DNA of 27,712 nucleotides from a virus. The position numbers and the translations under genes are program-made. Location of the stretch: IMG/VR virus record IMGVR_UViG_3300031673_000376, positions 1-27,712 of that record, one strand, 5' to 3'. Positions 1,641-20,403 of the stretch are shown piece by piece; the stretch's first letter is position 1; each line of letters opens with the position of its first letter. Under the pieces are notes generated by a model. The model searched no databases and was not told where the DNA came from. It saw only the letters and a list, made by a program, of their open reading frames with translations.

Positions 1641-1647
1641 AAAATGA

Positions 1648-1677: not shown

Positions 1678-1703
1678 GGGTGCAGGCTGAGAAAGGGAGC
1701 AGG

Positions 1704-1824: not shown

Positions 1825-1847
1825 TTCTTGTGCTTGAGGGTAATTAA

Positions 1848-3249: not shown

Positions 3250-3255
3250 ATAGTG

Positions 3256-3423: not shown

Positions 3424-3445
3424 CACCTACCGAAAGGAGCGGAAC

Positions 3446-4378: not shown

Positions 4379-4399
4379 CCATAAACCGGGAGGAGTCCC

Positions 4400-5347
4400 A
4401 TGTGGAAGCGCAAGGCTGAGGAGACCGTAGAGACCGCGACCCCGCAGCAACGGGAGCCGGAGCAGGGAACGCCGCCGACCAACGAGACCGAGCCGATGGC
4501 CGCAACCACCGGCGACGAGGAACCGGAGGTGGCCACCGCGACCGCATCCGCAGAGCCGCAGTCCGTCCCGGAGTCATTCGTCAAGCTGCCGGACTCGGAG
4601 GAGCACAACGTCCGCGTCCCGCTGTCCATCATGGCGAAGGTCGAGACGGCCGATGAGCTGGCGGCCGTACTCGGACGGATCGACGAGCTCGAGGCGGAAC
4701 TGGCAGTGATCAAGAAAGACTTCAAGGGCCGGATAGACGAGCGGATGGACCGCGCCTCCGCCCTGGCCTCCCGCATCCGCGAGGGCGACCTGGCCACCGT
4801 CGCCTGCGAGGTCTGGATCGACCACGCGGCCCGGGTCAAGCGGCTGGTGTCGCTGGAGACCGGGGAGATACTCGCCACTTGCCCGCTGGCCCCGGCGGAA
4901 CTGCAGCGCGAGATATTCGAGCAACCGGCCAGCGATGGGGACCCGGGTCTGGCCGCCGACCTGTGGAGCGTGCCGGACTTCACGGACTGGAAGGCCGATG
5001 ATGTCGAGGCCTGGTATCTGAACCGGCTCGTGGACTGCGGCTCGATGGAGGAATTGGTCGAGTTACTAAAGCGGCACGAGCCGATCATTGATGGCTTCAG
5101 CGAAGACCTCAAGGCGGCAATCAGGGATTTGGCGGGAGCCAGAATCGGGGAGCTTGAGGCTGGATTGGCTTACCTTGCCGGAGACGGCAGCCGCGCCGTC
5201 GCGCCTGATGCCGACGGAATCCTCTCGGCTGAGGACAGCGGCCCGGCGCCGCCCGACTATGATAACCGCGACCAGGCCGAGGCGGCCCGCGACCGGATGC
5301 TCGGCGCGACGGCGAAGGAGGCCGCTGATGCAACCGACGCCGAATAG
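4400..5347 (+). CDS. Acidic coiled-coil phage protein of unknown function
   Basis: The protein has 315 residues. Residues 1-65 are a low-complexity Glu/Thr/Pro/Ala tail without recognisable fold. Residues about 80-135 form a clear coiled coil (LAAVLGRIDELEAELAVIKK and following). Next is a compact segment with CEVWIDHAARVKRLVSLETGE and CPLAPAELQ, a pattern I recall from conserved but uncharacterised proteins in many phage replication regions. The C-terminal third is again acidic and helical. GGGAGGAG precedes the ATG. Its position between RusA and a ParB-like gene suggests a DNA-metabolism role, but this is only context. Confidence 0.7.
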   Translation: MWKRKAEETVETATPQQREPEQGTPPTNETEPMAATTGDEEPEVATATASAEPQSVPESFVKLPDSEEHNVRVPLSIMAKVETADELAAVLGRIDELEAELAVIKKDFKGRIDERMDRASALASRIREGDLATVACEVWIDHAARVKRLVSLETGEILATCPLAPAELQREIFEQPASDGDPGLAADLWSVPDFTDWKADDVEAWYLNRLVDCGSMEELVELLKRHEPIIDGFSEDLKAAIRDLAGARIGELEAGLAYLAGDGSRAVAPDADGILSAEDSGPAPPDYDNRDQAEAARDRMLGATAKEAADATDAE

Positions 5348-5684
5348 CCGGATAATGCGTCTCGGGAAGAAATTGAATCTAAAGTTAAAGGCTCTTTATC
5401 CTGGGAATAATAGCGCTCGATTGATTGAAGACAGAAGAGATTGTAGATACGGAGAAACCGTAGCTTTTTGGGAAGAGGTCAAACGCGAATGGCGCGAATC
5501 CGACGCCGCCAGGGTTGCCGAGATCGAGCGGGCGCGGCTGGGGGGCTATGAGGCGGCAAAAACTGAAATTGCTATCAGCCGATTAAAGGACGCTCAACAT
5601 GCGTTTGGTTTGCATGTGCCTCCCGGATATACATTAGAACAGGTGACAGCTTTAACCGCCCAGCAGACCGGGGGCATCACATGA
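5328..5684 (+). CDS. Hypothetical protein of distinct base composition
   Basis: The ATG at 5328 has AAGGAGG 6 bases upstream and 118 codons follow. The frame continues open further upstream, but only as a shadow of the preceding gene. The N-terminal part is basic (RLGKKLNLKLKALYPG), the middle is helical (FWEEVKREWRESDAARVAEIERA) and the C terminus reads VPPGYTLEQVTALTAQQ. The DNA from about 5340 to 5640 is visibly AT-richer than the genes on both sides, which suggests separate acquisition. It ends in an ATGA overlap with the ParB-like gene. No family is recognised. Confidence 0.6.
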   Translation: MQPTPNSRIMRLGKKLNLKLKALYPGNNSARLIEDRRDCRYGETVAFWEEVKREWRESDAARVAEIERARLGGYEAAKTEIAISRLKDAQHAFGLHVPPGYTLEQVTALTAQQTGGIT

Positions 5685-6223
5685 GCGCGGCCAAGAAGCA
5701 GCCCGATCAGCCGTCCCGGCCCGGCCTGTCGATCGTCTACGTCCCCCTGGCGGACCTGCGGCCCTTCGCCGGCAACCCGCGCCGGGCGACCCCGGATGGC
5801 CTCGACCGGCTCCGCAAGAGTATCAAGGCGTTCGGCTTTACCGCGCCGATCCTCGCCTGGCGGTCCCCGGCCGGCCTTGAGATCGTGGCCGGCCACCAGC
5901 GCGTCGAGGCCGCAAGGGCCGCCGGACTTGAGGTCGTCCCGGTGGTGGTCCTGCCGTTCGCGGACGCGGAGACGGCCCACGCCTACAACGTGGCGGACAA
6001 CCGGCTGGCTGAGGTCGTGGCCGACTGGGACTACGCGCCGCTGGCCGACCTGCTGACCGAGTTGGACACTGGGGCGTTCCCGACGGACGTTCTCGGCTGG
6101 ACGCCGGAGGAGATGGAGAAGCTGATGACGTGGACGCCGAACACGATAGACCCGAAGCTGGCCGGCGAGGCGCAATATGACGAGACGACCTGCCCGAAGT
6201 GCGGCTACAAGTTCAAGACGTAG
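5681..6223 (+). CDS. ParB/sulfiredoxin-fold protein with C-terminal zinc-ribbon-like motif
   Basis: The 180-residue protein contains the ParB N-terminal domain: YVPLADLRPFAGNPR, LRKSIKAFGFTAPILAW, IVAGHQRVEAARAAGLEVVPVVVLPF and NVADNRLAE. In phages this domain usually occurs in modification or regulatory proteins, often joined to a DNA methyltransferase (lengths above 400), and some members are nucleases or CTP-binding. Here the methyltransferase half is missing: only about 60 residues follow, ending in a CPKCG knuckle just before the stop. The next frame encodes a methyltransferase-like protein, so the usual fusion may be split in this phage. The start is an ATGA overlap with the previous gene. 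A chromosome-partition role is unlikely without ParA. Confidence 0.8.
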   Translation: MSAAKKQPDQPSRPGLSIVYVPLADLRPFAGNPRRATPDGLDRLRKSIKAFGFTAPILAWRSPAGLEIVAGHQRVEAARAAGLEVVPVVVLPFADAETAHAYNVADNRLAEVVADWDYAPLADLLTELDTGAFPTDVLGWTPEEMEKLMTWTPNTIDPKLAGEAQYDETTCPKCGYKFKT

Positions 6224-6758
6224 CCGGCAATTCATCCATCGGGACAACACAGACATCCTGTCGAAAGTTAAAATCAGGAAGGCCGTGGCTGACCTACTCG
6301 ACAATCCGGCGGTCTTCGATGTCTTCCCCGGCTCCGGCATGATGCACCGGCACATTTGGCATCAGTATCCCTATCAGGCGAACCCGCTACCACTGGAAGA
6401 CATTAAGAGCATCGAAGCCAACCTGGTGGATGTGGACACCTACTCAAACCCTTGGCCGGTGATTGAAAGGCTGTTGCCGCTCTGTGCCGCCGATCCGCTG
6501 GGGATCGTGGCGACGGACGCGGCCCTTGCCAGCCTAAAATTCGGCGGCAGAGTCCCGATCTGGGCGATTGAACTGTGCGGCTGCCAGCAAACCAAAAGGT
6601 CCAAATTGTGGCTAATCCATCATTACGAGGCCGCCTGTCTAAAGCATATGGAGCATATAGCGGCAACGGTCGGGCGGAAGGTGGCATCGGCGCAGATAGT
6701 TCGCGGCGGCCATGCCAGGCAGATGGGATATTGGGGATTTTTGATCGGGAGAGTCTGA
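6177..6758 (+). CDS. Methyltransferase-like protein, start uncertain
   Basis: From residue 20 on (FIHRDNTDILSKVKIRKAV) the frame looks like a real protein. AVFDVFPGSGMMHRHIW (residues 45-61) resembles SAM-binding motif I, and LVDVDTYSNPW (83-93) resembles the catalytic-strand region of Rossmann-fold methyltransferases. The distance between these is short, so a strand-helix unit that normally holds the SAM ribose-binding acidic residue may be missing. The only ATG before this region, at 6177, lies inside the ParB-like gene, and its first 19 residues are Arg/Ser-rich shadow sequence. The true start may be a rare codon near 6221, or the gene may have lost its front. It could be the separated partner of the ParB-like protein. 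The final part (HIAATVGRKVASAQIVRGGHA) is of unknown role. Confidence 0.5.
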   Translation: MTRRPARSAATSSRRSRQFIHRDNTDILSKVKIRKAVADLLDNPAVFDVFPGSGMMHRHIWHQYPYQANPLPLEDIKSIEANLVDVDTYSNPWPVIERLLPLCAADPLGIVATDAALASLKFGGRVPIWAIELCGCQQTKRSKLWLIHHYEAACLKHMEHIAATVGRKVASAQIVRGGHARQMGYWGFLIGRV

Positions 6759-6847
6759 AAGTCGGTGAGCTAACCTGTTGTATATAAACGATTTACAGCG
6801 CAAGAGCAAGCGGGGCAAAACGGGTAGTGGCAGAAAATGGAGTCGAG

Positions 6848-6902
6848 GCCGTAAACTGTTGCGTAGAAATGTTTTACAGGCGCGATTTACGGCGTCTTTT
6901 TT
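6848..6902 (+). terminator. Candidate Rho-independent terminator
   Basis: GCCGTAAA (6848-6855) pairs with TTTACGGC (6886-6893), and a smaller CTGT/ACAG stem can form inside the 30-base loop. A run TCTTTTTT follows directly. It lies after the last gene of the replication/recombination block and before the next promoter, a sensible place for termination. The long loop lowers confidence. Confidence 0.45.
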
Positions 6903-7003
6903 GGAAACGGGTATAATTACATAGGCCGGAATAAAAAGATCGATTATGGGACACGTGCGGAGGACGATATTTTGGGGCGAAAGACGAAAAGCAAGAAAAA
7001 GGC

Positions 7004-7032
7004 TTGACATGACGTATATAATAGACTATATT
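7004..7032 (+). promoter_or_regulatory. Sigma70-type promoter
   Basis: TTGACA (7004-7009) is a perfect -35 element, and TATATT (7027-7032) matches the -10 consensus at five of six positions, with the ideal 17-base spacer. Transcription would start near 7039 and read into the gene at 7093, whose ribosome binding site GGAAGGAG lies in the leader. This is the best promoter match found in the window. Confidence 0.7.
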
Positions 7033-7092
7033 ATTAGCAGAGATGGTTGAGCAACCTCAACGCCGCCCGATGGGGCGGAAGGAGCGGAGACG

Positions 7093-7389
7093 ATGGGCGC
7101 GAAATGGGAAATGGTCGAGGAGACCGCAGGAGAGCAGTTCCTGCTCTTGCGACGGACCACCGACGGCAAAATGACCGTCGTGGAGTATTCCCGCGAGCAC
7201 GGTCAGGTTTATTCGGCCATGCCGGGCGATATGCCCGAGGGGAGCGGTCGCTGGTATGCCAGATTCAGCGATGCCGGAATCGATTACGTAGCATCGGGCT
7301 ATTCACCGAGCTACGCCCGGAGAATTTTCCGGGAACTCAAGGCAGACATTGAGTATGATCATCGGTTGCTGGCGGAGGCCGTGGCTTAG
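7093..7389 (+). CDS. Hypothetical protein, first gene after the promoter
   Basis: The 98-residue protein has a beta-rich start (MGAKWEMVEETAGEQFLLLRR) and an SPSYARRIFRELKADIEYD helix near the end. It could be a small single-domain protein. GGAAGGAG stands before the ATG at normal spacing, and the gene is the first in the transcript from the 7004 promoter, so it may be strongly or early expressed. First-position small genes of this kind in phages are often host-takeover or anti-defence proteins, but nothing in the sequence proves that here. No family recognised. Confidence 0.65.
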   Translation: MGAKWEMVEETAGEQFLLLRRTTDGKMTVVEYSREHGQVYSAMPGDMPEGSGRWYARFSDAGIDYVASGYSPSYARRIFRELKADIEYDHRLLAEAVA

Positions 7390-7413
7390 ACGGATTCGGT
7401 CCAAGGAGTCGTG

Positions 7414-7593
7414 ATGCAACCAGTGGAGATAGGAGACTGGATCAAGGACAGGTCCGGCCTGCCCTTCCGGGGCAAAGTTGAAAGTCGCGTCTTGATCGGC
7501 GGCAAAATACCGGGATTTAAGGTCTGGACTGGCGATGATAGATATGAGCTCGCCGTGGAATCCGAGGTTGAATTATGGTTCAAAGCGGAATAA
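7414..7593 (+). CDS. Small hypothetical protein
   Basis: A 59-residue frame begins MQPVEIGDWIKDRSGLPF and is rich in beta-strand-like segments (GKVESRVLIGG, GFKVWTGDDRYEL), suggesting a compact SH3- or OB-like barrel, which is only a visual guess. AAGGAG at 7403-7408 is 5 bases before the ATG at 7414 and only 2 before the GTG at 7411, so the ATG is chosen. It overlaps the XRE gene by 19 bases. Confidence 0.6.
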   Translation: MQPVEIGDWIKDRSGLPFRGKVESRVLIGGKIPGFKVWTGDDRYELAVESEVELWFKAE

Positions 7594-7784
7594 GCGCCCA
7601 GGACAATGGGCTGAAATCGTGGCGAGCCGCAAACGGCTACACCCAGGCCCGGCTCGCCGCCGCCCTCGGCGTGACCGTCACCACGGTCTCGCGGTGGGAG
7701 TCCGGCCTACATCCGTTGCCGCCCTATCTCGGCCTGGCGCTGGAACGGCTGGCCGAAAAAACCGAAACCCCGGAGGGCACATGA
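7575..7784 (+). CDS. XRE-family helix-turn-helix DNA-binding protein
   Basis: The 69-residue protein is essentially one lambda-repressor-like HTH domain. LKSWRAANGYTQARLAAALGV forms helices 1 and 2, and TVTTVSRWESG is the recognition-helix region. It is too short to carry the usual C-terminal dimerisation or cleavage domain, so it resembles Cro-like or small autorepressor proteins. A natural target is the promoter region at 7004-7032 upstream. The gene sits inside an overlapping cluster, sharing 19 bases with the gene before and an ATGA junction with the radical SAM gene after. Confidence 0.8.
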   Translation: MVQSGISAQDNGLKSWRAANGYTQARLAAALGVTVTTVSRWESGLHPLPPYLGLALERLAEKTETPEGT

Positions 7785-8494
7785 AGGCTGTCTACGAACC
7801 GAAAGGCCGCGCCGCCGAGTATTGCGACCTGGCGGCCAATCTTTACGCCGGCTGCGGCCACCGCTGCGGATATTGCTATATGCCAGCGATCCGGCATCAG
7901 ACGGTTGATACCTTCGGCTGCGCCGCGCCGAGGCTGGGCATTATCCAGGCCCTTGAGGCCGAGCTGCCCGGATACTGGGGCCGCGAAGTGCTCCTGTGTT
8001 TCTCCTGCGACCCCTACCAGCCAATCGAGGCCGAGCACGGCCTGACCCGGCGAACGCTCGAATTGATGCGCGACGCCGATGTGATCCCGCGCATCCTCAC
8101 CAAGGCGAGCCTCGCCCGGCGCGATTTCGATCTAATCCGGCAGGCGCACGGAATTTTCGGCATGACCCTGACGTTCATCACGCCGGAGAAGTCGCGCCAT
8201 TGGGAGCCGGGAGCCGCGCCGCCGGAGGATCGGTTCGAGACGCTGCGGCTGGCGAAGGCCGCCGGGATAGCGACCTGGGCCAGCCTTGAGCCTGTGATCG
8301 ATCCAGCCGAGACGCTGGCGATCATCGAGCGGACTCACGGCTACGTTGACCACTACAAGGTCGGCACCCTGAATCACCGCGCCGAGGCCCGCGAAATCGA
8401 TTGGCCCGTATTTGCCCGAGCGGTCAAGGCCAAACTGGAATCCTTGGGCGCGGCATATTACCTCAAGGCCGACCTGCGCCGGTGGCTGGCCTGA
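7781..8494 (+). CDS. Radical SAM protein, spore-photoproduct-lyase-related (SplB-like)
   Basis: The 237-residue protein contains the iron-sulfur cluster motif CxxxCxxC at Cys25, Cys29 and Cys32 (GCGHRCGYCYMP), placing it in the radical SAM superfamily, which uses a [4Fe-4S] cluster to split SAM into a 5'-deoxyadenosyl radical. LCFSCDPYQPIE, ILTKASLARRDFDLI, ITPEKSRHWEPGAAPPEDR and WASLEPVIDP are typical of the SplB-like group often found in phages. The substrate in phages is unknown: DNA lesion repair, nucleotide or tRNA modification are all possible. The ATG at 7781 overlaps the XRE stop; a longer frame starting at 7535 is out-of-frame shadow. A promoter lies just after the gene. Confidence 0.85.
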   Translation: MKAVYEPKGRAAEYCDLAANLYAGCGHRCGYCYMPAIRHQTVDTFGCAAPRLGIIQALEAELPGYWGREVLLCFSCDPYQPIEAEHGLTRRTLELMRDADVIPRILTKASLARRDFDLIRQAHGIFGMTLTFITPEKSRHWEPGAAPPEDRFETLRLAKAAGIATWASLEPVIDPAETLAIIERTHGYVDHYKVGTLNHRAEAREIDWPVFARAVKAKLESLGAAYYLKADLRRWLA

Positions 8495-8528
8495 CTGACC
8501 CCGCGTCGGGGGGACCGCCGGGGACCCC

Positions 8529-8557
8529 TTGACCGGAAGGCCGCCGGGGGGTATATT
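8529..8557 (+). promoter_or_regulatory. Candidate late-module promoter
   Basis: TTGACC (8529-8534) and TATATT (8552-8557) each match the consensus at five of six positions and are exactly 17 bases apart, within an otherwise very GC-rich stretch. A CCCCG-CGT-CGGGG hairpin (8499-8511) sits just upstream and may insulate it from the radical SAM operon. The predicted start near 8564 is only about 3 bases before the first ATG, so that gene would be read from a nearly leaderless transcript. Confidence 0.6.
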
Positions 8558-8566
8558 GGAGACGAC

Positions 8567-8764
8567 ATGAGTGAGCTTGAGTATCATCCCGTCGGATTGA
8601 CGCCGGAGGACCGCCGGTTCCTTGAGGCTCACTGGAAGGGGCGTCCGAGCCCCTACGTGCCGATTCTCCCCCTGGACGCCGCAGACGGTACAGGCCGGGC
8701 ATTGCCTACCTTGGGCGATTCCGGGATGGCCGGGGCCGAGCAGGCGGATAAACCCGAGCCATGA
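8567..8764 (+). CDS. Small hypothetical protein at the start of the late module
   Basis: The 65-residue frame starts MSELEYHPVGLTPEDRRFLEAHWKG, with one amphipathic helix, then a Pro/Gly-rich tail. GGAGA lies 4 bases before the ATG, but it would be lost from transcripts that begin at the 8529 promoter. The stop overlaps the next gene in an ATGA junction. It resembles small proteins often seen near phage small terminases, but no function can be assigned. Confidence 0.55.
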   Translation: MSELEYHPVGLTPEDRRFLEAHWKGRPSPYVPILPLDAADGTGRALPTLGDSGMAGAEQADKPEP

Positions 8765-8913
8765 GGACGGCTCTGACCGTCGGTTCGCTGGCCCTGCTCG
8801 GCCTCAGCCTGTTCCGCGTGGCGACCGAGAATTGGGGACCGGACGCCTGGTATCTGCTGGCCGGCGGATCGCTGGTCCTGGCGCTGCTGGCGGTAGCGTG
8901 GAGGAAACCGTGA
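8761..8913 (+). CDS. Small two-helix membrane protein
   Basis: Fifty codons encode MRTALTVGSLALLGLSLFR, a polar turn (VATENWGPDAWY) and LLAGGSLVLALLAVAWRKP. Two hydrophobic segments with a short polar hinge and a basic end predict a hairpin membrane protein. It is coupled on both sides by ATGA and GTGA overlaps with its neighbours. Its size and topology fit a holin-like or superinfection-exclusion peptide, but the position before the terminase is unusual for lysis genes, so the role is open. Confidence 0.6.
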   Translation: MRTALTVGSLALLGLSLFRVATENWGPDAWYLLAGGSLVLALLAVAWRKP

Positions 8914-9389
8914 CCGAGACCCTCCAGCACCGGGAGGCGTTCGACTACTACTACGGTCTCGGCGAGGGCCGGACCCTCGAAGCGGTCGCCGCCCAGTTTG
9001 GTGTCGTCAAGCGGACGGCGGAGCAGTGGAGCCGGTCCCTTGAGTGGCAGCGGCGCGTGGCCGAGCGGGACCGCGTGAACGGCGAGGCGCTGGAGCGCCG
9101 GACCGACCAGGCCGTCGTCCGGTCGACCGCGCAGCACCTCCAGGAGATCAACCAGAGCCTCAACCTGATCCGGCTGTCCCTGGCGACGGCCCTGGTGAAG
9201 AACGGCGAGGGCAAGCTGAAGCTCAACCCGACGCTGAGCGTGAAGGACATCGAGGACATGAAAAGGCTCGTGGACTGCCACGTGAACCTCATCAAGGCCG
9301 ACCGCCTGGTGCGCGGCGAGACCACCGACAGCCACGAGATCAAGATTCGCGTCAAGCCGGCGCCGGGGATCGGGCCGGAGGACGCCTGA
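8910..9389 (+). CDS. Small terminase subunit-like DNA-binding protein
   Basis: The 159-residue protein begins with an HTH domain of the type seen in phage small terminases: REAFDYYYGLGEGRTLEAVAAQFGVVKRTAEQWSRSLEWQRRV. The middle is strongly helical (LQEINQSLNLIRLSLATALV, DIEDMKRLVDCHVNLIKADRLV), as expected for the oligomerising core, and the C-terminal segment is short and flexible. TerS binds the packaging site and regulates TerL, encoded 1.7 kb downstream. The GTG at 8910 is preferred because GGAGG stands 5 bases before it and it forms a GTGA overlap; the longer upstream frame is shadow. Other HTH-type regulators share this pattern, so the call is probable, not certain. Confidence 0.68.
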   Translation: MTETLQHREAFDYYYGLGEGRTLEAVAAQFGVVKRTAEQWSRSLEWQRRVAERDRVNGEALERRTDQAVVRSTAQHLQEINQSLNLIRLSLATALVKNGEGKLKLNPTLSVKDIEDMKRLVDCHVNLIKADRLVRGETTDSHEIKIRVKPAPGIGPEDA

Positions 9390-9410
9390 CCCAAACCGAG
9401 AGGAGGGAAC

Positions 9411-9620
9411 ATGCCAGCAGACATGACCGCGGACGGCCTTGCCCGCATCGAGGCCGCCCTGAAGAAGGAACTCGAAGCCACGGCGGAGGAGCTGCGCCGG
9501 CTCCAGCAGCAGCGCAACGACCTGGAGCGCGACCTCGGCGAAGTCATGGCGGCCCGGCGGTTCATGGAGCGGATCGCCGCCCGCGAGGCGCGGGAGAAGA
9601 AAGCCGGGGCGAAGCCGTGA
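9411..9620 (+). CDS. Short coiled-coil protein
   Basis: Sixty-nine residues are almost entirely one charged coiled coil (IEAALKKELEATAEELRRLQ and following), ending in a basic tail EKKAGAKP. AGGAGGG precedes the ATG. It ends in a GTGA overlap with the next gene. It probably acts as an oligomeric accessory protein, but no family or partner can be named. Confidence 0.6.
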   Translation: MPADMTADGLARIEAALKKELEATAEELRRLQQQRNDLERDLGEVMAARRFMERIAAREAREKKAGAKP

Positions 9621-10135
9621 TCCCCGCCGATGTCACGCCCGGCCTGGTCGCCAAGTACCAGGCGGCGACGGAGCTCCAGGATGCCATCGGGCGGCGGCCC
9701 TTCCCGGAGATGGTGGCCGCGCTCCCGATGCTGGTCTGGGACCGCCGGATCGGCCGCGTCTGCGTGGCCCTGTGGGCCTCCCGGCGGACAATGGCCCGGC
9801 TCGGCGAGCCGATGCCGGAGCGCGGCGGTCTGCCGTTCATGCTGATCGACGCCGACCGCGCCCGGGAGCGGGAGCCGGCGGGGGAGCCGAGGGCCGTCCC
9901 GGACGGCGAGTGCCCGGTGGTCTTCCTGCCGGACCAGGGATATCTCCAGCGGATGATCGGGCAGGCGCGGGGAGAGGACATCGTTCTGGTATTCTGGACG
10001 TTCATCGATGACTATCTGGACGCCGACAAGGACTACGAGGGCAAGACCGCCGACGAAATCTGGCTGGACTTTTACATGAGCTGGAAACATGGCAAAACCT
10101 GGAGGGAGGGAGCATGGCAGACAAGCGAGATTTGA
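9617..10135 (+). CDS. Hypothetical protein with a conserved-looking C-terminal acidic segment
   Basis: The GTG at 9617 overlaps the preceding stop and 172 codons follow; a longer upstream frame is shadow of other genes. Segments PFPEMVAALPMLVWDRR and CVALWASRRTMARLGEPM look like a folded domain. The C-terminal part has FWTFIDDYLDADKDYEGK then DEIWLDFYMSWKHGKTW, rich in aromatic and acidic residues. I do not recognise the family. The position between TerS and TerL suggests a packaging or head accessory role. Its last 22 bases overlap the next gene. Confidence 0.6.
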   Translation: MIPADVTPGLVAKYQAATELQDAIGRRPFPEMVAALPMLVWDRRIGRVCVALWASRRTMARLGEPMPERGGLPFMLIDADRAREREPAGEPRAVPDGECPVVFLPDQGYLQRMIGQARGEDIVLVFWTFIDDYLDADKDYEGKTADEIWLDFYMSWKHGKTWREGAWQTSEI

Positions 10136-10392
10136 CGCCCGAGGAGGAGGCCGCCCTGGCGCGCGCCGCCGCCGAGAAGGCCCGGGCCGAGCGCGAGGCG
10201 CGGGTCAAGCGCGACCTGGAGGTTAACGGCCTGCGAGGGGTGAACCGGCAGACGATCCTCGCGACGGCCGGCCGGCGGCACGTCCTGACGGTCCACTGCG
10301 AGATCGAGTTCGCCGACCGGGAGGACGCGCGGGAGGCCCAGCGGCAGATCGGGGCGCTGCGGCCGCTGAGGCTTCAAGGGCTACGGAAGTAG
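10114..10392 (+). CDS. Hypothetical protein with helical N terminus
   Basis: The 92-residue protein has a long Ala/Glu/Arg helix (EEEAALARAAAEKARAEREA), followed by a strand-rich part (TILATAGRRHVLTVHCEIEF) and a final helix (DREDAREAQRQIGALRPL). The ATG has GGAGGGAG upstream within the previous gene. It is the last gene before the GGCNN repeat array. No recognised family. Confidence 0.55.
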   Translation: MADKRDLTPEEEAALARAAAEKARAEREARVKRDLEVNGLRGVNRQTILATAGRRHVLTVHCEIEFADREDAREAQRQIGALRPLRLQGLRK

Positions 10393-10399
10393 GCGGCGA

Positions 10400-10454
10400 G
10401 GCACGGCTTGGCGTGGCTTGGCACGGCATGGCGGGGCGTGGCAAGGCGTGGCAC
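10400..10454 (+). repeat. Array of eleven GGCNN pentamers
   Basis: From 10400 the sequence is strictly 5-base periodic: GGCAC, GGCTT, GGCGT, GGCTT, GGCAC, GGCAT, GGCGG, GGCGT, GGCAA, GGCGT, GGCAC. The first three bases never vary, while the last two do. It lies in a non-coding gap of about 150 bases between two genes. From memory, similar GGC-pentamer runs occur in intergenic gaps of unrelated phages with no assigned function. It is neither a CRISPR array nor an ordinary codon repeat. Confidence 0.85.
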
Positions 10455-10462
10455 GGGTTGAC

Positions 10463-10499
10463 GGTTGTCGCCCTGTCCGATCTGGGCGGGGCGACAGCC
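10463..10499 (+). other. Strong hairpin next to the GGCNN array
   Basis: GGTTGTCGCCC (10463-10473) pairs with GGGCGACAGCC (10489-10499) over 11 bases with a single G-U pair and a 15-base loop. It is followed by seven A residues rather than U, so it is not a terminator on this strand. It ends 48 bases before the next ATG and could protect or process the mRNA or control that gene. Confidence 0.65.
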
Positions 10500-10546
10500 A
10501 AAAAAAGAAGACAAAGCGTGGTTTCTTTTAACCGGAGGGTGAAGTG

Positions 10547-11074
10547 ATGGGCATGGTTTATCAGTGGAAATCGGGAGCACGGTTCGGGGTCGATCCCCAA
10601 GTCGCGCATGAGTGTTTTGAAACCATACGGGAGAAGAATGACGGCAAGCTTCAGCCGCCGGCAATCGTGAAGGCCGCTAAAGGCAAAAAATCTCCCCTTC
10701 ATTCCGTGTTCGAATGGGATGATACCATAGCCGGCCAGGAACATAGGCTCTGGCAGGCTCGCCAGCTTGTCGCTTGTCTGGTGGTCATTTACGAAACGGA
10801 GGAGAAGGAAAGTGAGCCGATAAGGGCCTATGTCAGCCTGCCGGATGATGACGGCGAACGCAGTTATTGTTCGGTGCCGGACGCCCTGTCCGACGAAGAG
10901 CAGCGCAAGAGCGTTTTTCAAGATGCGCTCAGCGGACTCCTGATCTGGCGTAATAAGTTCCGGGGGCTGAACGAATTCACCAAGGTCTTCATGGCGATAG
11001 ACGACCTGCAACTCGGACTTGACCTGGAAAATGAAGTCCAGGAGGCCGGTCTCGCCGAGAAGGTGATACAATAA
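10547..11074 (+). CDS. Conserved phage protein of unknown function
   Basis: The 175-residue protein begins MGMVYQWKSGARFGVDPQVAHE and contains LQPPAIVKAAKGKKSPLH, FEWDDTIAGQEHRLWQARQL and PIRAYVSL. I recognise this pattern from uncharacterised proteins in many phages, often near terminase or replication genes. GGAGGG at 10534-10539 is 7 bases before the ATG at 10547 and 4 before an in-frame GTG at 10544, so the ATG is preferred. Codon choice and base composition are AT-richer than TerL right after it, which hints at a separate origin for the pentamer-array/gene segment. Confidence 0.7.
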   Translation: MGMVYQWKSGARFGVDPQVAHECFETIREKNDGKLQPPAIVKAAKGKKSPLHSVFEWDDTIAGQEHRLWQARQLVACLVVIYETEEKESEPIRAYVSLPDDDGERSYCSVPDALSDEEQRKSVFQDALSGLLIWRNKFRGLNEFTKVFMAIDDLQLGLDLENEVQEAGLAEKVIQ

Positions 11075-11078
11075 CGGC

Positions 11079-12341
11079 ATGGACCTGGACATCGACCTGA
11101 CCGGCCTCCGCGAGACCGTCAACGACGCCTTCTGGCCGCTGATGACCTGCCGCAAGCGCTTCCTGGTCCTCCGGGGCGGTGCCGGCGCGGGCAAGTCGCA
11201 GTTCTGCGCCCAGAAGCTTCTCACGCGGCGCATCCTCGGCCTCCAGCGCGGCATCCGGCACAGCTTCCTCCTACTGCGCAAGACCGGTCCGGCGGCGCGG
11301 CGGTCCGTGTTCAGGGACATGAAGGACTGGATCGCCGAGTGGGAGCTGCGCCCGCTGGTCGAGACGCACGAGACGGACATGACGTTCCACTGGATCGACG
11401 GGACGGTCGACTACTGCCAGGGCGTGGACGATCCGGAGAAGCTCAAGAGCTTGAGCGGGATCACGACGGCCTGGATGGAGGAGGCGACGGAGTTCACCCC
11501 AGATGACTTCACGCAGGTCAACCTCCGGCTCCGGGGCCGCCGGGGGCCGCATGACCGCCCGCTGACCTACTTCCAGATCATGCTCAGCTTCAACCCGATC
11601 AGCCGCCGCAACTGGGTCTACCAGCACTTCTTCGACCCGAAAACCCCGGCGCACCGGCTCCAGCAGACGGAGCTCCACCACTCGACCTACAAGGACAACC
11701 GCTTCCTGGACGACGACTACCGGGGCCAGCTTGAGGCCTATGAGCGGGAGAACGAGAACTACCACCGGGTCTACACGCTCGGCGAGTGGGGCGAGCTGAG
11801 GGGCCTGATCTATGATAACTGGCGCGTCGAGGACGACTGGCCCGGCAGCTTCGACATCGTGATCTACGGCCTCGACTTCGGCTTCACGGTCGAGACCGCC
11901 CTGGTGGAGATCGGCATCCGGGACGGCGAGCCGTGGCTGCGCGAGCTGGTCTACGAGCGGGGGATGACGAACCGGGAGCTGATCGCCCGGATGGGCGAGC
12001 TCGGCGTCAACCGGGGCTGGGAGATAATCGCCGACGAGGAGAAGCCGGAGGCCATCAAGGAGATCGGGGACGCGGGCTACTCCGTCCGGGCCTGCGAGAA
12101 GGGGCCCGGGTCAGTCATGGCCGGGATCGACGTGTGCAAGCGGCGGACAATGCACGTGCATCGCGGCTCCGTCGGGCTGATCAAGGAGCTGGAGGGCTAC
12201 CGCTGGCGAGAGAAGAACGGGATGCCGCTCGACGAGCCGATCAAGCTGAACGACCACGGACTCGACGCGGTCCGGTATAGTCTGCACTACCTGCACGACC
12301 TGGAAACCGGGGGCCGTCCCCGCATCCGGCGGATCACGTAG
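11079..12341 (+). CDS. terL: Terminase large subunit (TerL, PBSX/XtmB type)
   Basis: This 420-residue protein is the DNA-packaging motor. The ATPase half has Walker A GGAGAGKS (residues 33-40) and a Walker B/catalytic Glu region ITTAWMEEATEF (128-139), followed by a coupling-type segment LSFNPISRRNWV. The C-terminal RNase H-like nuclease half shows YGLDFGFT (Asp266), IIADEEKPEAI (Asp319) and NDHGLDAVRYSLHYL (Asp392/Asp396), the expected metal-binding acids. The length is normal for the PBSX-type family. The ATG lies 4 bases after the preceding stop with only a weak ribosome binding site, so coupling to the upstream gene is likely. The portal gene is 2.6 kb downstream, with an unusually long set of accessory genes between. 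Confidence 0.93.
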   Translation: MDLDIDLTGLRETVNDAFWPLMTCRKRFLVLRGGAGAGKSQFCAQKLLTRRILGLQRGIRHSFLLLRKTGPAARRSVFRDMKDWIAEWELRPLVETHETDMTFHWIDGTVDYCQGVDDPEKLKSLSGITTAWMEEATEFTPDDFTQVNLRLRGRRGPHDRPLTYFQIMLSFNPISRRNWVYQHFFDPKTPAHRLQQTELHHSTYKDNRFLDDDYRGQLEAYERENENYHRVYTLGEWGELRGLIYDNWRVEDDWPGSFDIVIYGLDFGFTVETALVEIGIRDGEPWLRELVYERGMTNRELIARMGELGVNRGWEIIADEEKPEAIKEIGDAGYSVRACEKGPGSVMAGIDVCKRRTMHVHRGSVGLIKELEGYRWREKNGMPLDEPIKLNDHGLDAVRYSLHYLHDLETGGRPRIRRIT

Positions 12342-12367
12342 GCCGTTAAACCAAGGAGGCTGAGGAC

Positions 12368-12967
12368 ATGAAGAAAAAGCAGGAAAAAACGGCGGCGGTC
12401 GACATCACCATCCGCGGCGACCTGAGCCGGCTGACGCTCCGGGATGGAGAGGTCCTGGTCCTGGAGGTGCCGAAGCCGCTGACCGGCGCTCAATATGAGA
12501 TACTTCGCATGGACATGTTGCAGGCCCTCGACATCGCCGGGGCATCGGTCGCAGCCAAGCGCATACTGATCCTGGACGGCGGCGCCCGCCTCCGCGTGGT
12601 CGCCCGGGACGCCGCCGGCGCAGCCCCGGAGACCAAGACCTGCCCGGACTGCGGCCGGCTGATGATCCGCATCTCCGACGGGCGCTGTCTGACATCCTAT
12701 CCGACGCAGTACCCGATGATCTGGTGGTGCAACTGCGGCCACCACGAGAACGCCGGGACCGACCATGACAAGACCGCCGAGCGAATCCAGCTGGAGCGGT
12801 GGGCGGCTGTCAACGCCTTCCGGTTCCGGCGGTTTCGCTGCCCGGTGCATGGCGAGACCGAAAGGCCGGACACCGGAGAGCCGCAGAAGTGCCAGGCGCC
12901 GCTTTTCGGGGGCGACAACACGCAGTACGGCGTTTGTGGCCGCGAGATGGAGCGGGTGGAGCCGTGA
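12368..12967 (+). CDS. Protein with multiple zinc-knuckle cysteines
   Basis: The 199-residue protein has an N-terminal domain (TIRGDLSRLTLRDGEVLVLEV, then ILILDGGARLRVV) of a kind I have seen in phage proteins of unknown role. The C-terminal half is rich in Cys: CPDCG (Cys92/95), CNCGHH (Cys121/123), CPVHGE (Cys158), Cys175 and Cys190. Two zinc sites are possible. AAGGAGG precedes the ATG. It stops in a TGATG overlap with the next gene. The role is unknown; a structural zinc protein in the morphogenesis region is the best guess. Confidence 0.65.
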   Translation: MKKKQEKTAAVDITIRGDLSRLTLRDGEVLVLEVPKPLTGAQYEILRMDMLQALDIAGASVAAKRILILDGGARLRVVARDAAGAAPETKTCPDCGRLMIRISDGRCLTSYPTQYPMIWWCNCGHHENAGTDHDKTAERIQLERWAAVNAFRFRRFRCPVHGETERPDTGEPQKCQAPLFGGDNTQYGVCGREMERVEP

Positions 12968-13287
12968 TGCCGACCCCGCCGGTGGCGCTGCTCATCATAT
13001 GGCTGGTCCTCTGCCTCGTGGTCTGTGTCCTGAGCGTCAACGAAGACATCATGGTGGACCTGGTGACCCCTTGGGTGCGCGAGGTCCGCGAGCGGCGGCG
13101 GCGCGACGCCCAGGAGCGCAAGTGGACCGAGCGGATGAACCGGCTGATGACGCCGCACGTCAACTGCCGCTGCGTCTTCCCGGACCCGGGGCCTCCACCT
13201 GGCGAGGTCGTCGACGCCTTCCTGCGGTCCCTCGGCCCCGGCGCCGGAGGGCCGCCAGGCGAGCGTGGCCAGGGGAGGGAGCCGTAA
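12967..13287 (+). CDS. Single-pass membrane protein with charged cytoplasmic tail
   Basis: The ATG at 12967 overlaps the preceding TGA; a GTG one codon earlier is an alternative. Of the 106 residues, about 4-24 (PPVALLIIWLVLCLVVCVLSV) are hydrophobic enough for one membrane helix. A strongly basic amphipathic stretch (REVRERRRRDAQERKW) and a Cys pair (VNCRCVFP) follow, then a Gly/Pro-rich tail. Topology resembles Rz-like or holin-associated proteins, but there is no endolysin nearby, so no function is assigned. Confidence 0.55.
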   Translation: MPTPPVALLIIWLVLCLVVCVLSVNEDIMVDLVTPWVREVRERRRRDAQERKWTERMNRLMTPHVNCRCVFPDPGPPPGEVVDAFLRSLGPGAGGPPGERGQGREP

Positions 13288-13360
13288 CCGCGCCGGGGGA
13301 TGCCCGGAACTACCCGGCGGGGGACATCGCCAGTCCTGAGCGATTTTTGAGGTTTGCGAC

Positions 13361-14038
13361 GTGAGCCATTCTCAACCGGTGTTTGCCGACGATCCCGCCG
13401 AACTGCTGCGCCGCGCCAAGGCCGAGGGCGACGAAGCCGCCGCCCGCAAGCTCGGTCTGCTGCGCCCCGGCGACCCCGACTTCGACGAGGCCGCGCGGGA
13501 GATCATCCGGCGGGACTGCCGGGACTCGCAGGCGGGGATGCCGTTCAGTGAGACTGCGCGGCGGCTACCCGGGAGGGCGCGGACGCTGCGGCCAGACGGC
13601 CAGGCGAAACGAAAGGAGAAAAAAGAAAATGGCGAAGGCGAAATTGACGGCGACCATGACGGCAAAGATCGGTCCCGTGTTCACGCTGGACCGCCTGCCG
13701 GAGCCGGGGGAGGTGATCCCGGTCGGGAAGAACGCCCAAGCGCTGCTGATAGGCGGCGGGAAATATCGTATCATGGAGCTGCTGCCCGGCGGCCTCGACG
13801 GTCGCCTGATCCGGAAGGGGCCGTGGCCGGAAGAGGAACCCGCTCCCGAACCGCAGCCGCCGGAAAGCGGGAGGCCGCACTGACCGCCGAGCTGGCCCGC
13901 CGGACTGACGATGCTGGCGATGCCCTCCGGGAGATCGACGCCGCGACCGCGGACGTGATCCGGGAGTTGCGCCTGGCGACTGCGCGGCTGGAGCGGGCGC
14001 GGGCCAGGGCGCGACGGGTGCTCGGGGAGTTACCGTGA
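13361..14038 (+). CDS. Long frame with coding-like ends and a nested gene in its middle
   Basis: A GTG at 13361 opens 225 codons. The first 65 residues (DDPAELLRRAKAEGDEAAAR, RPGDPDFDEAAREIIRRDC) look like a real acidic helical protein. The last 52 (LTAELARRTDDAGDALREID and following) look like a real coiled coil. Between them, at 13629-13880, the Arg/Gly/Pro-rich translation looks like shadow, while another frame has better codon structure and a strong ribosome binding site. Either this is one protein overlapping an internal gene, or two separate genes that happen to share a frame. The ribosome binding site before the GTG is weak (GAGG). Confidence 0.45.
   Translation: MSHSQPVFADDPAELLRRAKAEGDEAAARKLGLLRPGDPDFDEAAREIIRRDCRDSQAGMPFSETARRLPGRARTLRPDGQAKRKEKKENGEGEIDGDHDGKDRSRVHAGPPAGAGGGDPGREERPSAADRRREISYHGAAARRPRRSPDPEGAVAGRGTRSRTAAAGKREAALTAELARRTDDAGDALREIDAATADVIRELRLATARLERARARARRVLGELP
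13629..13883 (+). CDS. Small beta-rich hypothetical protein
   Basis: The ATG at 13629 follows AAAGGAG at good spacing, and 84 codons give MAKAKLTATMTAKIGPVFTL then LPEPGEVIPVGKNAQALLIGG and a Pro/Glu-rich tail. The third codon positions are strongly GC, as in neighbouring real genes, unlike the other two frames here. It is nested inside the longer frame at 13361-14038. No family recognised. Confidence 0.6.
   Translation: MAKAKLTATMTAKIGPVFTLDRLPEPGEVIPVGKNAQALLIGGGKYRIMELLPGGLDGRLIRKGPWPEEEPAPEPQPPESGRPH
13880..14038 (+). CDS. Possible separate small coiled-coil gene (alternative to the long frame)
   Basis: If the long frame is not one gene, its last 52 codons could be a gene of their own. 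A CTG at 13880 overlaps the TGA of the nested gene (CTGA) and has GGGAGG 5 bases upstream. A GTG at 13823 with GGAAGGGG upstream is another possible start. The product is a charged helix (ADVIRELRLATARLERARAR). It ends in a GTGA overlap with the next gene. CTG starts are rare, so confidence is low. Confidence 0.35.
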   Translation: MTAELARRTDDAGDALREIDAATADVIRELRLATARLERARARARRVLGELP

Positions 14039-14391
14039 ACCTTCCCCCTGGCGCTATGCAGTTGGTCGACCCCGAGGTCTTCCGGCTTCTGATCGGCAGC
14101 CTGATCGCGCTGGTCAAGCAGTCCGGCGGCGAGGCCTCGGTGCCGGACAACGCGGCGGGACTGCCGGGCATCCCCGAGGGCGTCATCATCGAGCGCGACG
14201 GCGCCAGCCTGACACTCCGGCACTTCGTCGGGACGCCGGAGGAGGCCCGGCAGCAAATCCCGAAAGGTCTCTACTTCTACCTCAAGCCGGGGCCGAGCGC
14301 GGACGGCGGCGACGCCGGGCGGTCGCACGAGGGGGTCCCCCCGCCGGCGGAGGTCGTCAGGCGGTTCATCCGGGAGCTCGGCATTGGCTGA
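14035..14391 (+). CDS. Hypothetical protein
   Basis: The GTG at 14035 overlaps the previous stop in GTGA. The 118 residues show an N-terminal helix (DPEVFRLLIGSLIALVKQ), a possible strand pair (GVIIERDGASLTLRHFVG) and an EEARQQIPKGLYFYLKPG segment, then a polar linker and a short C-terminal helix. It could be a small structural or regulatory protein. It is the last gene of ordinary composition before the terminator region. No family recognised. Confidence 0.55.
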   Translation: MNLPPGAMQLVDPEVFRLLIGSLIALVKQSGGEASVPDNAAGLPGIPEGVIIERDGASLTLRHFVGTPEEARQQIPKGLYFYLKPGPSADGGDAGRSHEGVPPPAEVVRRFIRELGIG

Positions 14392-14563
14392 GATGGCTCC
14401 GGGCAAGTGGACCCCTGAAAAAGTTCTTGACTTTCTGCGCGGACTCAAATATGCTCACTACAACGGTAGCATTGAAATACACCTATCCCAGGGAGGAATA
14501 ACTGCGGTGAAGCAACACGCAGACGTCGAGCCGCAGGAAATCAGCCGAAAAAACGGGTCCTGA
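14384..14563 (+). CDS. YezD-like (DUF2292) small protein
   Basis: A short frame encodes TPEKVLDFLRGLKYAHYNGS then IEIHLSQGGITAVKQ, closely following the DUF2292/YezD pattern of a helix with LxxLxYG, a strand with IEI and a strand with GxIxxV. These 50-60 residue proteins are widespread and of unknown role. The TTG at 14384 has GGGAG 7 bases upstream and overlaps the previous gene by 8 bases; the ATG at 14393 is the alternative start (56 residues). The gene is AT-richer than its neighbours and lies directly before a terminator. Confidence 0.55.
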   Translation: MAEMAPGKWTPEKVLDFLRGLKYAHYNGSIEIHLSQGGITAVKQHADVEPQEISRKNGS

Positions 14564-14580
14564 GATAGCCTGAGAATCGC

Positions 14581-14599
14581 GGGGAGGGGTCCCCTCCCC
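14581..14599. repeat. Perfect GC palindrome
   Basis: GGGGAGGGG and CCCCTCCCC flank one central T, a perfect 9-base inverted repeat. As RNA it forms a very stable hairpin after the YezD-like stop. No T run follows, but a second hairpin with a T run is 17 bases further on, so the pair may act together in termination or in protecting the 3' end. Confidence 0.6.
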
Positions 14600-14615
14600 C
14601 GAAAGGTCCTGTCCA

Positions 14616-14667
14616 GCCCGCTCCTACCACCCAAGGCAAGGGTGGCGGGGGTGGGCTTTTTCTTTTT
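14616..14667 (+). terminator. Rho-independent terminator
   Basis: CCACCC (14627-14632) pairs with GGGTGG (14640-14645) around a 7-base loop. GCCC (14616-14619) pairs with GGGC (14653-14656) to extend the stem through wobble pairs, and TTTTTCTTTTT follows at once. This is the clearest terminator in the window and divides the terminase block from the portal/capsid block. No obvious promoter was found between it and the portal, so readthrough or antitermination may supply the capsid genes. Confidence 0.75.
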
Positions 14668-14675
14668 CACGGAGG

Positions 14676-14936
14676 ATGACCGCCTTGCTTCTGACCAACC
14701 CGGTGATGACCGCCGCCGTCGGCCTCTGCTTCTTGTTCTACCTGGCCTGGTCGGCCTACACGATCTACTTCGTGGTCATGCTCGAAAAGCTGCGGGAGAC
14801 CCGGCTGATCGGCCGCCTGCTCTACTACCACGGCCTGGCCTGGATCGTCGGCCTGATCGCCGTGGCCATTCTGACGCTCACGCTGGTGTTCGCGACCGTG
14901 GTCACCAACTGGCTGAGGCTCCAGGGGGTGACTTGA
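14676..14936 (+). CDS. Two-helix membrane protein
   Basis: The 86-residue protein has two hydrophobic segments, residues about 12-36 (AAVGLCFLFYLAWSAYTIYF) and 55-77 (WIVGLIAVAILTLTLVFATV), joined by a basic loop with KLRETRLIGR. GGAGG directly touches the ATG at 14676 with no spacer, so the TTG at 14685 (9-base spacer) may be the real start. It resembles small phage membrane proteins of unknown role; a holin is possible but it lies far from any lysis gene. The stop overlaps the portal start (TTGA). Confidence 0.6.
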   Translation: MTALLLTNPVMTAAVGLCFLFYLAWSAYTIYFVVMLEKLRETRLIGRLLYYHGLAWIVGLIAVAILTLTLVFATVVTNWLRLQGVT

Positions 14937-16342
14937 CCGTGGGCCTCCGCGAAATGACCCTGGCCATCGCCCGCGCCCAGCGCATGGACGCCGCCGCCGA
15001 GTCCACGCCGATGCGGCCCAACGCGCTCGCCGGCGCTCTGCTGCCGGCCTGGGACTACGGCCGGCCGCTGACGACCAGGGGTGACTTCGAGGCGCTGGTC
15101 CGGCTCTGCAAGAGCTGGACCTACATCTGCGCCAGCCGGAACGCCACCGCCGTCGCGCACGGCAACCTCCGCCTGTTCGTCAGCAAGCCCTCCAGGGACG
15201 TCAAGGTTCTGTTCCCGTCCCGCGCCGTCGACCGGCGGCTCCACCGGGAGCTCGAACTGAACCCCGTCGTGGCCGGCCTGGCCGCCTTCCAGAAGGCCGC
15301 CGAGATCGAGGAACTGACCGACCACCAGTTCCTCCGGCTGTTCCGCCGCGTCAACAAATTCATGAATCGATTCTACCTGATGGAGACCACCGAGCTTTTC
15401 CTGGAGCTTTTGGGCAACGCCTACTGGTACGTCCTGCGCAACCGTCTGGGCCAACCCGCCGAACTGTGGCCGGTCCCGGCCCAGGGGATGCGGATAGTTC
15501 CCGACCGGAAGCAGTTCATCGCCGGCTACGTCTACGAGACGGGCATGGAGCGCGTCCCGTTCGACGAATCGGAGATCATCCACTTCAAGTTCCCGTCCCC
15601 TCACTCGGAATACTACGGCATGGGGCCGCTGGCCGCCGTGATCGACGCCGTCCTGATCGGCGAGCAGATGTCCCGCTACGAGCGGGCGACGTTCAAGAAC
15701 ATGGCCCGGCCCGACGGCGTGCTGGAGGTGGACGAAACTCTCAAAAAAGACGAGTTCGACCGGATGAAAGAGGAGTGGGTCAACACTTACGGCGATACGA
15801 GCGCCGCCGGCAAGGTCGCCCTTCTGGAGAAGGGCGTCCATTACAAACAGATCAGCCTCTCGCCCCGCGAGCTCAACTTCCTGGCCGGCCGCCGGCTGAC
15901 CAAGGAAGAGATCATGAACGCCTTCGGCCAGAACCTCGGGATGTACTCTGAGGAGTCCAACCGGGCGAATAGCGAGCAGGCAGAGTACACCTACAGCAAG
16001 TACGCCGTCGCGCCCCGGCTGCACCGCATGGAGGAGAAGCTGAACGAGAAGCTCCTGCCGATGTTCTCCCCGGACCTGTTCTGCGCCTTCGACAACCCGG
16101 TCCCGGCGGACGAGCAGCTGCGGCTGGAGCAGATCAGGGCGCACCTGGATACCGGCTACGCGGACATCAACGAGGAGCGCCAGCAGGATGGCCTCGGGCC
16201 GCGCGCCTGGGGCGATGGCCCCTGGCTGTCGAGCATGCTGATCCAGGCCGGGGACGCCTCCGGGGATCAGCTCCAAGCTTTCGCCGGGCTGGTGGCCGAG
16301 AAGGTCCGCCGCCGCCTCGCCGCCGATGGGGTGCGGGCATGA
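14933..16342 (+). CDS. Portal protein, HK97 family
   Basis: This protein of about 469 residues forms the dodecameric portal ring at the head vertex, through which TerL pumps DNA. Diagnostic parts are YICASRNATAVAH near the N terminus, NAYWYVLRN, ELWPVPAQGMRIVPD, YGMGPLAAVIDA, the LSPRELNFLAGRRLTKEEI/FGQNLGMYSEES block, and DEQLRLEQIRAHLDTGYADINEER close to the end, all as in HK97-type portals. The frame is open far upstream as shadow. The TTG at 14933 is preferred because it forms a TTGA overlap with the previous gene behind GGGGG; a GTG at 14939 and ATG at 14954 are alternatives. The next gene overlaps by ATGA. Confidence 0.92.
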   Translation: MTVGLREMTLAIARAQRMDAAAESTPMRPNALAGALLPAWDYGRPLTTRGDFEALVRLCKSWTYICASRNATAVAHGNLRLFVSKPSRDVKVLFPSRAVDRRLHRELELNPVVAGLAAFQKAAEIEELTDHQFLRLFRRVNKFMNRFYLMETTELFLELLGNAYWYVLRNRLGQPAELWPVPAQGMRIVPDRKQFIAGYVYETGMERVPFDESEIIHFKFPSPHSEYYGMGPLAAVIDAVLIGEQMSRYERATFKNMARPDGVLEVDETLKKDEFDRMKEEWVNTYGDTSAAGKVALLEKGVHYKQISLSPRELNFLAGRRLTKEEIMNAFGQNLGMYSEESNRANSEQAEYTYSKYAVAPRLHRMEEKLNEKLLPMFSPDLFCAFDNPVPADEQLRLEQIRAHLDTGYADINEERQQDGLGPRAWGDGPWLSSMLIQAGDASGDQLQAFAGLVAEKVRRRLAADGVRA

Positions 16343-17235: not shown

Positions 17236-17239
17236 CCCG

Positions 17240-20371: not shown

Positions 20372-20403
20372 GCGCCGACGCGCGAGAAGGGAGGTAGAAT
20401 ACT

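What the first reader, a model, noticed from the sequence alone, without database searches (positions are those of the whole stretch)
10400..10499. GGCNN pentamer array followed by a strong hairpin
Eleven strictly phased GGCNN units with fixed first three bases and free last two bases are not explained by coding or by simple slippage, which would give identical units. An 11-base-pair hairpin follows after 8 bases. The free dinucleotide positions use A, T, C and G, suggesting selection on the GGC phase itself, maybe for protein or ribosome/RNA contacts or for recombination between phages.
Basis: partly seen in the sequence, partly recalled or inferred. Interest (0 to 1): 0.6.

Follow-up and report, generated by a model that had tools for sequence, protein, structure and literature searches.

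The report
Gapped-code phage guide RNA (vrRNA)
The repeated GGC-plus-two-letters stretch is almost certainly the guide RNA of a recently described, CRISPR-related phage weapon (VIPR) whose free letter pairs spell out a DNA target, but this phage seems to carry the guide and a helper gene without the usual guide-binding protein.

Summary
The array is real: 12 consecutive GGC triplets, each followed by two free bases (10395-10454), two degraded units (GGGTT, GACGG), then a 16-pair hairpin (10463-10499). Simulations of the window never exceeded 5 units.

Such arrays are widespread, intergenic, and lie on the sense strand beside one phage gene family, phrog_4652. In 80 viral loci fetched by that protein, not by the array, 68 carry GGCNN arrays; none of the other 63 triplets forms any on the sense strand. 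Sixteen unrelated phage loci have none. The family's predicted fold is Cas7/Csm3 (VIA-align Z 11.8).

This matches VIPR, a preprint of April 2026 (PMC13142463): a Cas7-like Vipr protein with vrRNAs of GGY/NN repeats and a structured 3' tail. The NN pairs recognise DNA with one skipped base between pairs, repressing rival phages. The window's array is therefore a vrRNA of about 12 repeats.

New here: the gene after it (10544-11074, phrog_15946) accompanied a Vipr gene in 96 of 96 other loci, yet no Vipr was found in about 41 kb of this phage. It looks like an orphan vrRNA plus Vap, acting in trans, as a decoy, or as a remnant. A gap of unsequenced tail genes remains. No target was found.

The parts
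10395..10454 (+). vrRNA variable tract: 12 x GGCNN (NN = GA AC TT GT TT AC AT GG GT AA GT AC)
   Evidence: read directly; 5 units at most in 300 simulations
10455..10464 (+). two degenerate terminal units GGGTT GACGG (array-to-tail junction; overlaps the first 2 nt of the hairpin)
   Evidence: read directly; arrays in LESphi2 (GGGCTG) and wV8 (GGGTAG) end in the same style before a hairpin
10463..10499 (+). 3' tail hairpin, 16 pairs, 5-nt loop, not followed by a T run (so not an intrinsic terminator)
   Evidence: RNA fold, z -3.39 for the region, tail alone z -3.0
10500..10543 (+). A-rich spacer, weak second hairpin (about 10503-10529) and ribosome-binding site GGAGGG (10534-10539)
   Evidence: fold and sequence
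10544..11074 (+). phrog_15946 gene, probable VIPR accessory protein (Vap); ATG at 10547 is the likelier start
   Evidence: phrog_15946 E 3e-21; found with a Vipr gene on the same strand in 96 of 96 other loci
10114..10392 (+). upstream 92-aa ORF whose stop codon lies 3 nt before the array; no family hit
11079..12341 (+). large terminase gene, next in the same operon (context, not part of the system)
   Evidence: phrog_3717 E 2.6e-55

Best explanation
The array plus hairpin is one vrRNA, the guide RNA of a VIPR system. The GGC triplets are the positions held by a Cas7-like Vipr protein that coats the RNA one subunit per 5 nt. The 12 free dinucleotides read a double-stranded DNA target by base pairing with one skipped base between pairs, here GAxACxTTxGTxTTxACxATxGGxGTxAAxGTxAC. 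Binding represses transcription of a rival phage or satellite. The hairpin is the fixed 3' tail. The RNA lies in the leader of a phrog_15946 gene, a probable Vap (helper). The phage itself appears to lack a vipr gene, so the vrRNA most likely uses a Vipr supplied by a co-resident element, or is left from a lost system. Shown here: array, tail, phase conservation, sense-strand placement, association with the Cas7-like gene in relatives, and absence of vipr in the held DNA. Taken from the preprint: the skip code, RNP formation and repression. Inferred: that this particular RNA is expressed, processed and active, and where its Vipr comes from.
For: Arrays with truly free NN recur in viral contigs, in loci of GC 0.39-0.76, always on one strand per contig apart from one simple repeat, typically a few nt after a stop codon and co-directional with genes (56 ++ against 5 --). 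Unsupervised clustering of neighbours found one dominant family, phrog_4652. Reverse test: of 80 loci fetched by that protein, 68 have GGC arrays, 288 in all, and no other sense-strand triplet has any. Its AF2 model (pLDDT 96.6) matches Cas7/Csm3 throughout: Foldseek probability 1.00, VIA-align Z 11.8 over 159 of 195 residues with all 50 listed entries Cas7-like. Five named phages with the gene all carry the arrays, wV8 with GGT, which fits GGY. PMC13142463 describes GGY/NN vrRNAs of 9-16 repeats with a structured 3' tail, bound by a phage-encoded RAMP. The window fits: 12 repeats, tail hairpin, phage, and a gene family that accompanied Vipr in 96 of 96 loci; tblastn in annotated phages gave 33 records of the same make-up (27 Mycobacterium, 5 Gordonia, 1 Cyanophage) for each protein.
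Against: No vipr gene in the window or in its 34.3-kb sister contig by profile search, maximum-sensitivity HMM or hhalign. No convincing target: 22-base decoded patterns gave 0 hits in viral contigs and in genomes; the best partial match is 21 of 24, at chance level. The window's tail sequence is not shared with other loci, and strong folding after arrays is not general in the set (mean z -0.55). With 4 Mb of local DNA I could not reproduce the 1-nt skip rule.
Confidence: 0.88

Rival explanations
1. The phage has a complete VIPR: the vipr gene lies in the unassembled gap between the window's right end and the far end of the sister contig, or is too diverged to detect.
For: The genome is not closed; about 41 kb is held and the two contigs do not meet at the tail-gene side. 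In all 96 other loci phrog_15946 has a Vipr.
Against: In relatives Vipr lies beside phrog_15946; here its place is taken by the vrRNA. The gap is flanked on both sides by tail genes, an unlikely site. hhalign of all ORFs of 70 aa or more gave at most probability 2.9 against 99 for the most diverged Viprs.
Confidence: 0.25
2. A decayed remnant: the vipr gene was lost and the vrRNA-Vap leader is non-functional.
For: No vipr found; the last two units are degenerate; no target found.
Against: Twelve GGC triplets are intact, the tail hairpin is perfect (16 pairs) and the Vap frame is open, so any loss must be recent; degenerate last units also occur in active-looking arrays.
Confidence: 0.25
3. A binding array for a ring protein of TRAP type (triplet plus 2-nt spacer, about 11 sites) that regulates translation of the downstream gene.
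For: Spacing and copy number are the same as in TRAP sites (own knowledge), and the array lies in a leader.
Against: Array lengths vary from 7 to 29 units, which does not suit a fixed ring; the partner family has a Cas7 fold; the NN positions turn over completely between near-identical phages, unexpected for mere spacers.
Confidence: 0.04
4. A microsatellite or a two-tier G-quadruplex array without guide function.
For: GG tracts at 5-nt spacing could form two-tier quadruplexes; pentamer slippage is common (own knowledge; sequence).
Against: Slippage gives identical units, whereas the NN here are diverse; G-quadruplexes do not need the C, which is as constant as the GG (no GGA or GGG arrays); strand and gene association are near absolute.
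Confidence: 0.02

Closest known systems
VIPR vrRNA (Viral Interference Programmable Repeat; PMC13142463, bioRxiv April 2026, doi 10.64898/2026.04.26.720920)
   Same: Tandem GGY/NN pentamers, 9-16 repeats, hypervariable NN, structured 3' tail, intergenic in a phage, beside a two-gene locus of RAMP protein plus accessory protein in relatives
   Different: No vipr gene in the held DNA of this phage; a single vrRNA; the tail sequence is not shared with the relatives examined
Cas7/Csm3 backbone subunits of type III-A and type VII CRISPR complexes
   Same: The partner family phrog_4652 has the same fold over its whole length
   Different: No CRISPR array, no other cas genes; guide period 5 nt instead of 6; phage-encoded
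TRAP (MtrB) RNA sites, 11 x (G/U)AG with 2-nt spacers (own knowledge)
   Same: Constant triplet plus two free bases, about 11 copies in a leader
   Different: Partner is not a TRAP-like ring; array length varies; free bases turn over
TIGR-Tas (PMC12045711, abstract only)
   Same: Phage-encoded tandem guide RNA arrays
   Different: Its effector is a Tas protein, whereas the partner here has a RAMP (Cas7) fold; no GGC pentamer scaffold is described in the abstract
RNA anti-CRISPRs, Racr (PMC10651486, abstract only)
   Same: Solitary phage-borne copy of a guide-RNA scaffold without the effector; a model for the decoy reading
   Different: Mimics CRISPR repeats, not GGY/NN tracts

Membership tests
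vrRNA (guide RNA of VIPR) | 9-16 tandem GGY/NN repeats with constant GGY and free NN | tested here: met
   12 x GGCNN with seven different dinucleotides among the 12 units
vrRNA (guide RNA of VIPR) | structured 3' tail after the repeats | tested here: met
   16-pair hairpin 8 nt after the last GGCNN unit; tail z -3.0; tail sequence itself not shared with others
vrRNA (guide RNA of VIPR) | expressed small RNA that co-purifies with Vipr | not testable with these tools
   needs small-RNA sequencing and pull-down
vrRNA (guide RNA of VIPR) | NN pairs match a target under the 1-nt skip rule | tested here: inconclusive
   no match of 22 decoded bases in viral or genome contigs; best partial 21 of 24, chance level; target phage may not be sequenced
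VIPR system (complete locus) | vipr gene (RAMP homologue) in the locus | tested here: not met
   none in the window or in the 34.3-kb sister contig; about 41 kb covered, tail-gene gap remains, so absence from the phage is likely but not proven
VIPR system (complete locus) | vipr accessory gene (vap) | tested here: inconclusive
CRISPR-Cas class 1 | repeat-spacer array and cas genes | tested here: not met
   no CRISPR-like direct-repeat array among the tandem repeats of the window and no PADLOC match for two Viprs and the window gene
TRAP-regulated leader | TRAP (MtrB) protein and (G/U)AG triplets | tested here: not met
   triplet is GGC; partner family is Cas7-like

The most novel reading that the evidence does not exclude
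Solitary vrRNAs without a vipr gene are a class of their own: phages carry only a guide (and a Vap) and either borrow the Vipr protein of a co-infecting or resident VIPR element, or jam it with a decoy RNA, an anti-VIPR analogous to RNA anti-CRISPRs. This window would be one such element; seven further array-bearing contigs without any Vipr in the record (one of 105 kb) could be others.
Probability: 0.25. Interest if true: 0.75.

Novelty: new variant of a known kind. Interest (0 to 1): 0.55.

Why it matters
It places an unexplained phage repeat in a newly found, possibly pre-CRISPR class of RNA-guided DNA recognition. It offers two searchable handles (phrog_4652 = Vipr-like, phrog_15946 = probable Vap) and names tractable phages that carry such loci (M. 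smegmatis phage Saal, E. coli phage wV8, P. aeruginosa LESphi2, Gordonia phage Trine, cyanophage Cy-LDV1). The Vipr-less arrangement raises a testable question: can a guide RNA act as a parasite or inhibitor of another element's VIPR?

Tried and rejected
Literature search for 'GGCNN' and for pentamer repeats in phages gave nothing; the VIPR preprint turned up only once 'Cas7' and 'pentanucleotide' were combined, after the Cas7 link had been found independently here. TRAP-like ring and G-quadruplex readings were considered and dropped (see rivals). Rfam: no match. Intrinsic terminator: rejected for the sense strand, since an A run, not a T run, follows the hairpin. No sigma-70-type promoter found near the array. 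Test of 485 decoded vrRNAs against 4 Mb of local DNA: no skip length stood out over shuffles; the database is too small. Target searches with 16-, 18- and 22-base decoded patterns: no convincing hit; shared peptides among the hits are forced by the pattern and are not evidence. Host identification by terminase: no close relative in genomes. Fold of phrog_15946: no significant match in PDB, only weak winged-helix-like rows.

Full report
What is there. On the + strand, 3 nt after the stop of a 92-aa ORF (10114-10392), GGC occurs twelve times at exact 5-nt steps from 10395 to 10452, each followed by two free bases: GA AC TT GT TT AC AT GG GT AA GT AC. Two degraded units, GGGTT and GACGG, lead into a hairpin of 16 pairs at 10463-10499. 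Then come an A-rich spacer, a ribosome-binding site and the phrog_15946 gene (10544-11074), followed by the large terminase gene (11079-12341). In 300 first-order Markov simulations of the window the longest period-5 run of any triplet was 3 to 5 units.

How I reached the identity. Apart from a few simple repeats the NN are free: the second base is uniform (0.26/0.25/0.26/0.23), the first prefers purines, and only one contig, a simple repeat, has arrays on both strands. The arrays sit between genes, often 3 to 20 nt after a stop codon, and follow gene direction (56 ++ against 5 --), also in AT-rich contigs (GC 0.39). Clustering all proteins near arrays without prior labels gave one dominant family in 55 loci, 22 times directly upstream and 10 times directly downstream of an array, and a second family in 17 loci. 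All six members tested of the first are phrog_4652, function unknown. The second is phrog_15946, to which the window's own gene at 10544-11074 belongs.

Reverse test and control. Eighty viral loci were fetched with a phrog_4652 subfamily, without regard to arrays. Of these, 68 carry GGC arrays (288 arrays of six or more units), all on the sense strand of the gene. Among all 64 triplets on both strands nothing else forms an array except GCC on the antisense strand, which is the same thing. Sixteen loci fetched with the window's terminase (197 kb, same phage excluded) contain no GGC array. Five named phages with the gene (Cy-LDV1, Saal, LESphi2, wV8, Trine) all carry such arrays, with GGT in place of GGC in wV8. 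In Saal the modules repeat at exactly 59 nt. In a group of phages with 94-100% identical protein the flanks of the array are nearly constant while the dinucleotides differ completely in many of them, so the free positions turn over fast and the GGC frame does not.

The partner protein. The AlphaFold2 model of phrog_4652 is of high confidence (pLDDT 96.6). The listed Foldseek matches are Cas7/Csm3-type RAMP subunits of type III and type VII CRISPR complexes, with probability 1.00. VIA-align gives Z 11.8 over 159 of 195 residues, and all fifty listed entries are Cas7-like. A protein that coats RNA with fixed periodicity next to an RNA of fixed periodicity suggested a guide-like ribonucleoprotein before any paper was found.

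Known system. A preprint (PMC13142463) describes exactly this as VIPR: a phage-encoded ancestral RAMP, Vipr; vrRNAs of 9-16 GGY/NN repeats with a structured 3' tail; a small accessory gene, vap. It reports that the NN pairs recognise double-stranded DNA with one skipped base between pairs, that natural targets are rival phages and satellites, and that binding represses transcription. The window's array is a vrRNA by every sequence feature that can be tested here, except that no target was found. Expression, protein binding and activity of this particular RNA were not testable.

What is unusual here. A frame-independent scan found Vipr in 86 of 114 array loci, on the array's strand in 84. In the combined set phrog_15946 occurred in 96 loci, always with Vipr and always on the same strand; many of these loci are close relatives of each other, so they are not 96 independent cases. 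The two families were found by tblastn in 33 annotated phage records each, with the same make-up by organism. Yet the window has no Vipr by PHROG profile, maximum-sensitivity HMM, or hhalign of every ORF of 70 aa or more (probability at most 2.9, against 99 for diverged true Viprs). A sister contig of 34.3 kb, identical to window 544-20481 and reaching about 14 kb further left, has none either. That contig adds the early region (sigma factor, ERF-like annealing protein by my reading) and distal tail genes, so the unsequenced remainder most likely holds tail genes. In the closest relatives with Vipr (L096, L211) Vipr ends at or near the phrog_15946 start; here the vrRNA and its hairpin occupy that place. 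Seven further array-bearing contigs show no Vipr in the whole record, one of 105 kb, though all may be fragments.

Target. [quoted passage not shown] Codons with the skip at the wobble position are open on both strands, e.g. [DE]T[FL]V[FL]T[IM]GV[NK]VT, so a coding target is possible. It does not occur in the window, even with 3 mismatches. Patterns with 22 fixed bases found nothing in viral contigs or in genomes. Shorter patterns found only partial matches of up to 21 of 24, the best in AT-rich contigs, about as expected by chance. The target is unknown.

Verdict. The kind is already published; the apparent Vipr-less arrangement is a variant that the preprint's main text does not describe, and could mean trans use, decoy or recent decay. 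I cannot separate these three with the data at hand.

Noticed in passing
window 5316-5354 and L215 2030-2068 (- strand): A 39-nt stretch (AGGAGGCCGCTGATGCAACCGACGC[C/T]GAATAGCCGGATA), i.e. ribosome-binding site, ATG and first nine codons, is shared with one mismatch by two genes of the same phage, one of them apparently the phage sigma factor.
   Followed up: partly
L070, L127-L152 (about 600 nt downstream of the Vipr gene): Near-identical phages carry different vrRNA modules between constant flanks; modules end in GGCAx-GGCA, differ in number, and some are duplicated or shared with one or two mismatches. How the dinucleotides are replaced while the GGC frame is kept is not explained.
   Followed up: partly
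L009, L032, L043, L054, L075, L091, L105: vrRNA-like arrays in contigs (18-105 kb) with no detectable Vipr gene anywhere in the record.
   Followed up: partly
L208 3437-4000 and 5022-5420 (E. coli phage wV8): Repeats annotated only as DR_4 on both sides of gp95-gp94 overlap tails of GGTNN vrRNAs; gp95 is the Vipr homologue.
   Followed up: partly
window 2179-2283: Two adjacent tandem repeats (11-mer CCAACAACCGG and 9-mer AAGAATGGT) inside ORF 1848-2681.
   Followed up: no
window 114-1133: MT-A70 methyltransferase domain fused to an N-terminal part matching the LmbU family regulator model, below its cut-off.
   Followed up: no
window 7535-8494: Radical SAM protein (Pfam Radical_SAM) in the early region of the phage.
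   Followed up: no
L001-L120, all non-simple arrays: The first free base avoids C (0.13) and prefers purines (0.67), the second is uniform, and TA is under-represented (0.032 against 0.051 expected).
   Followed up: no
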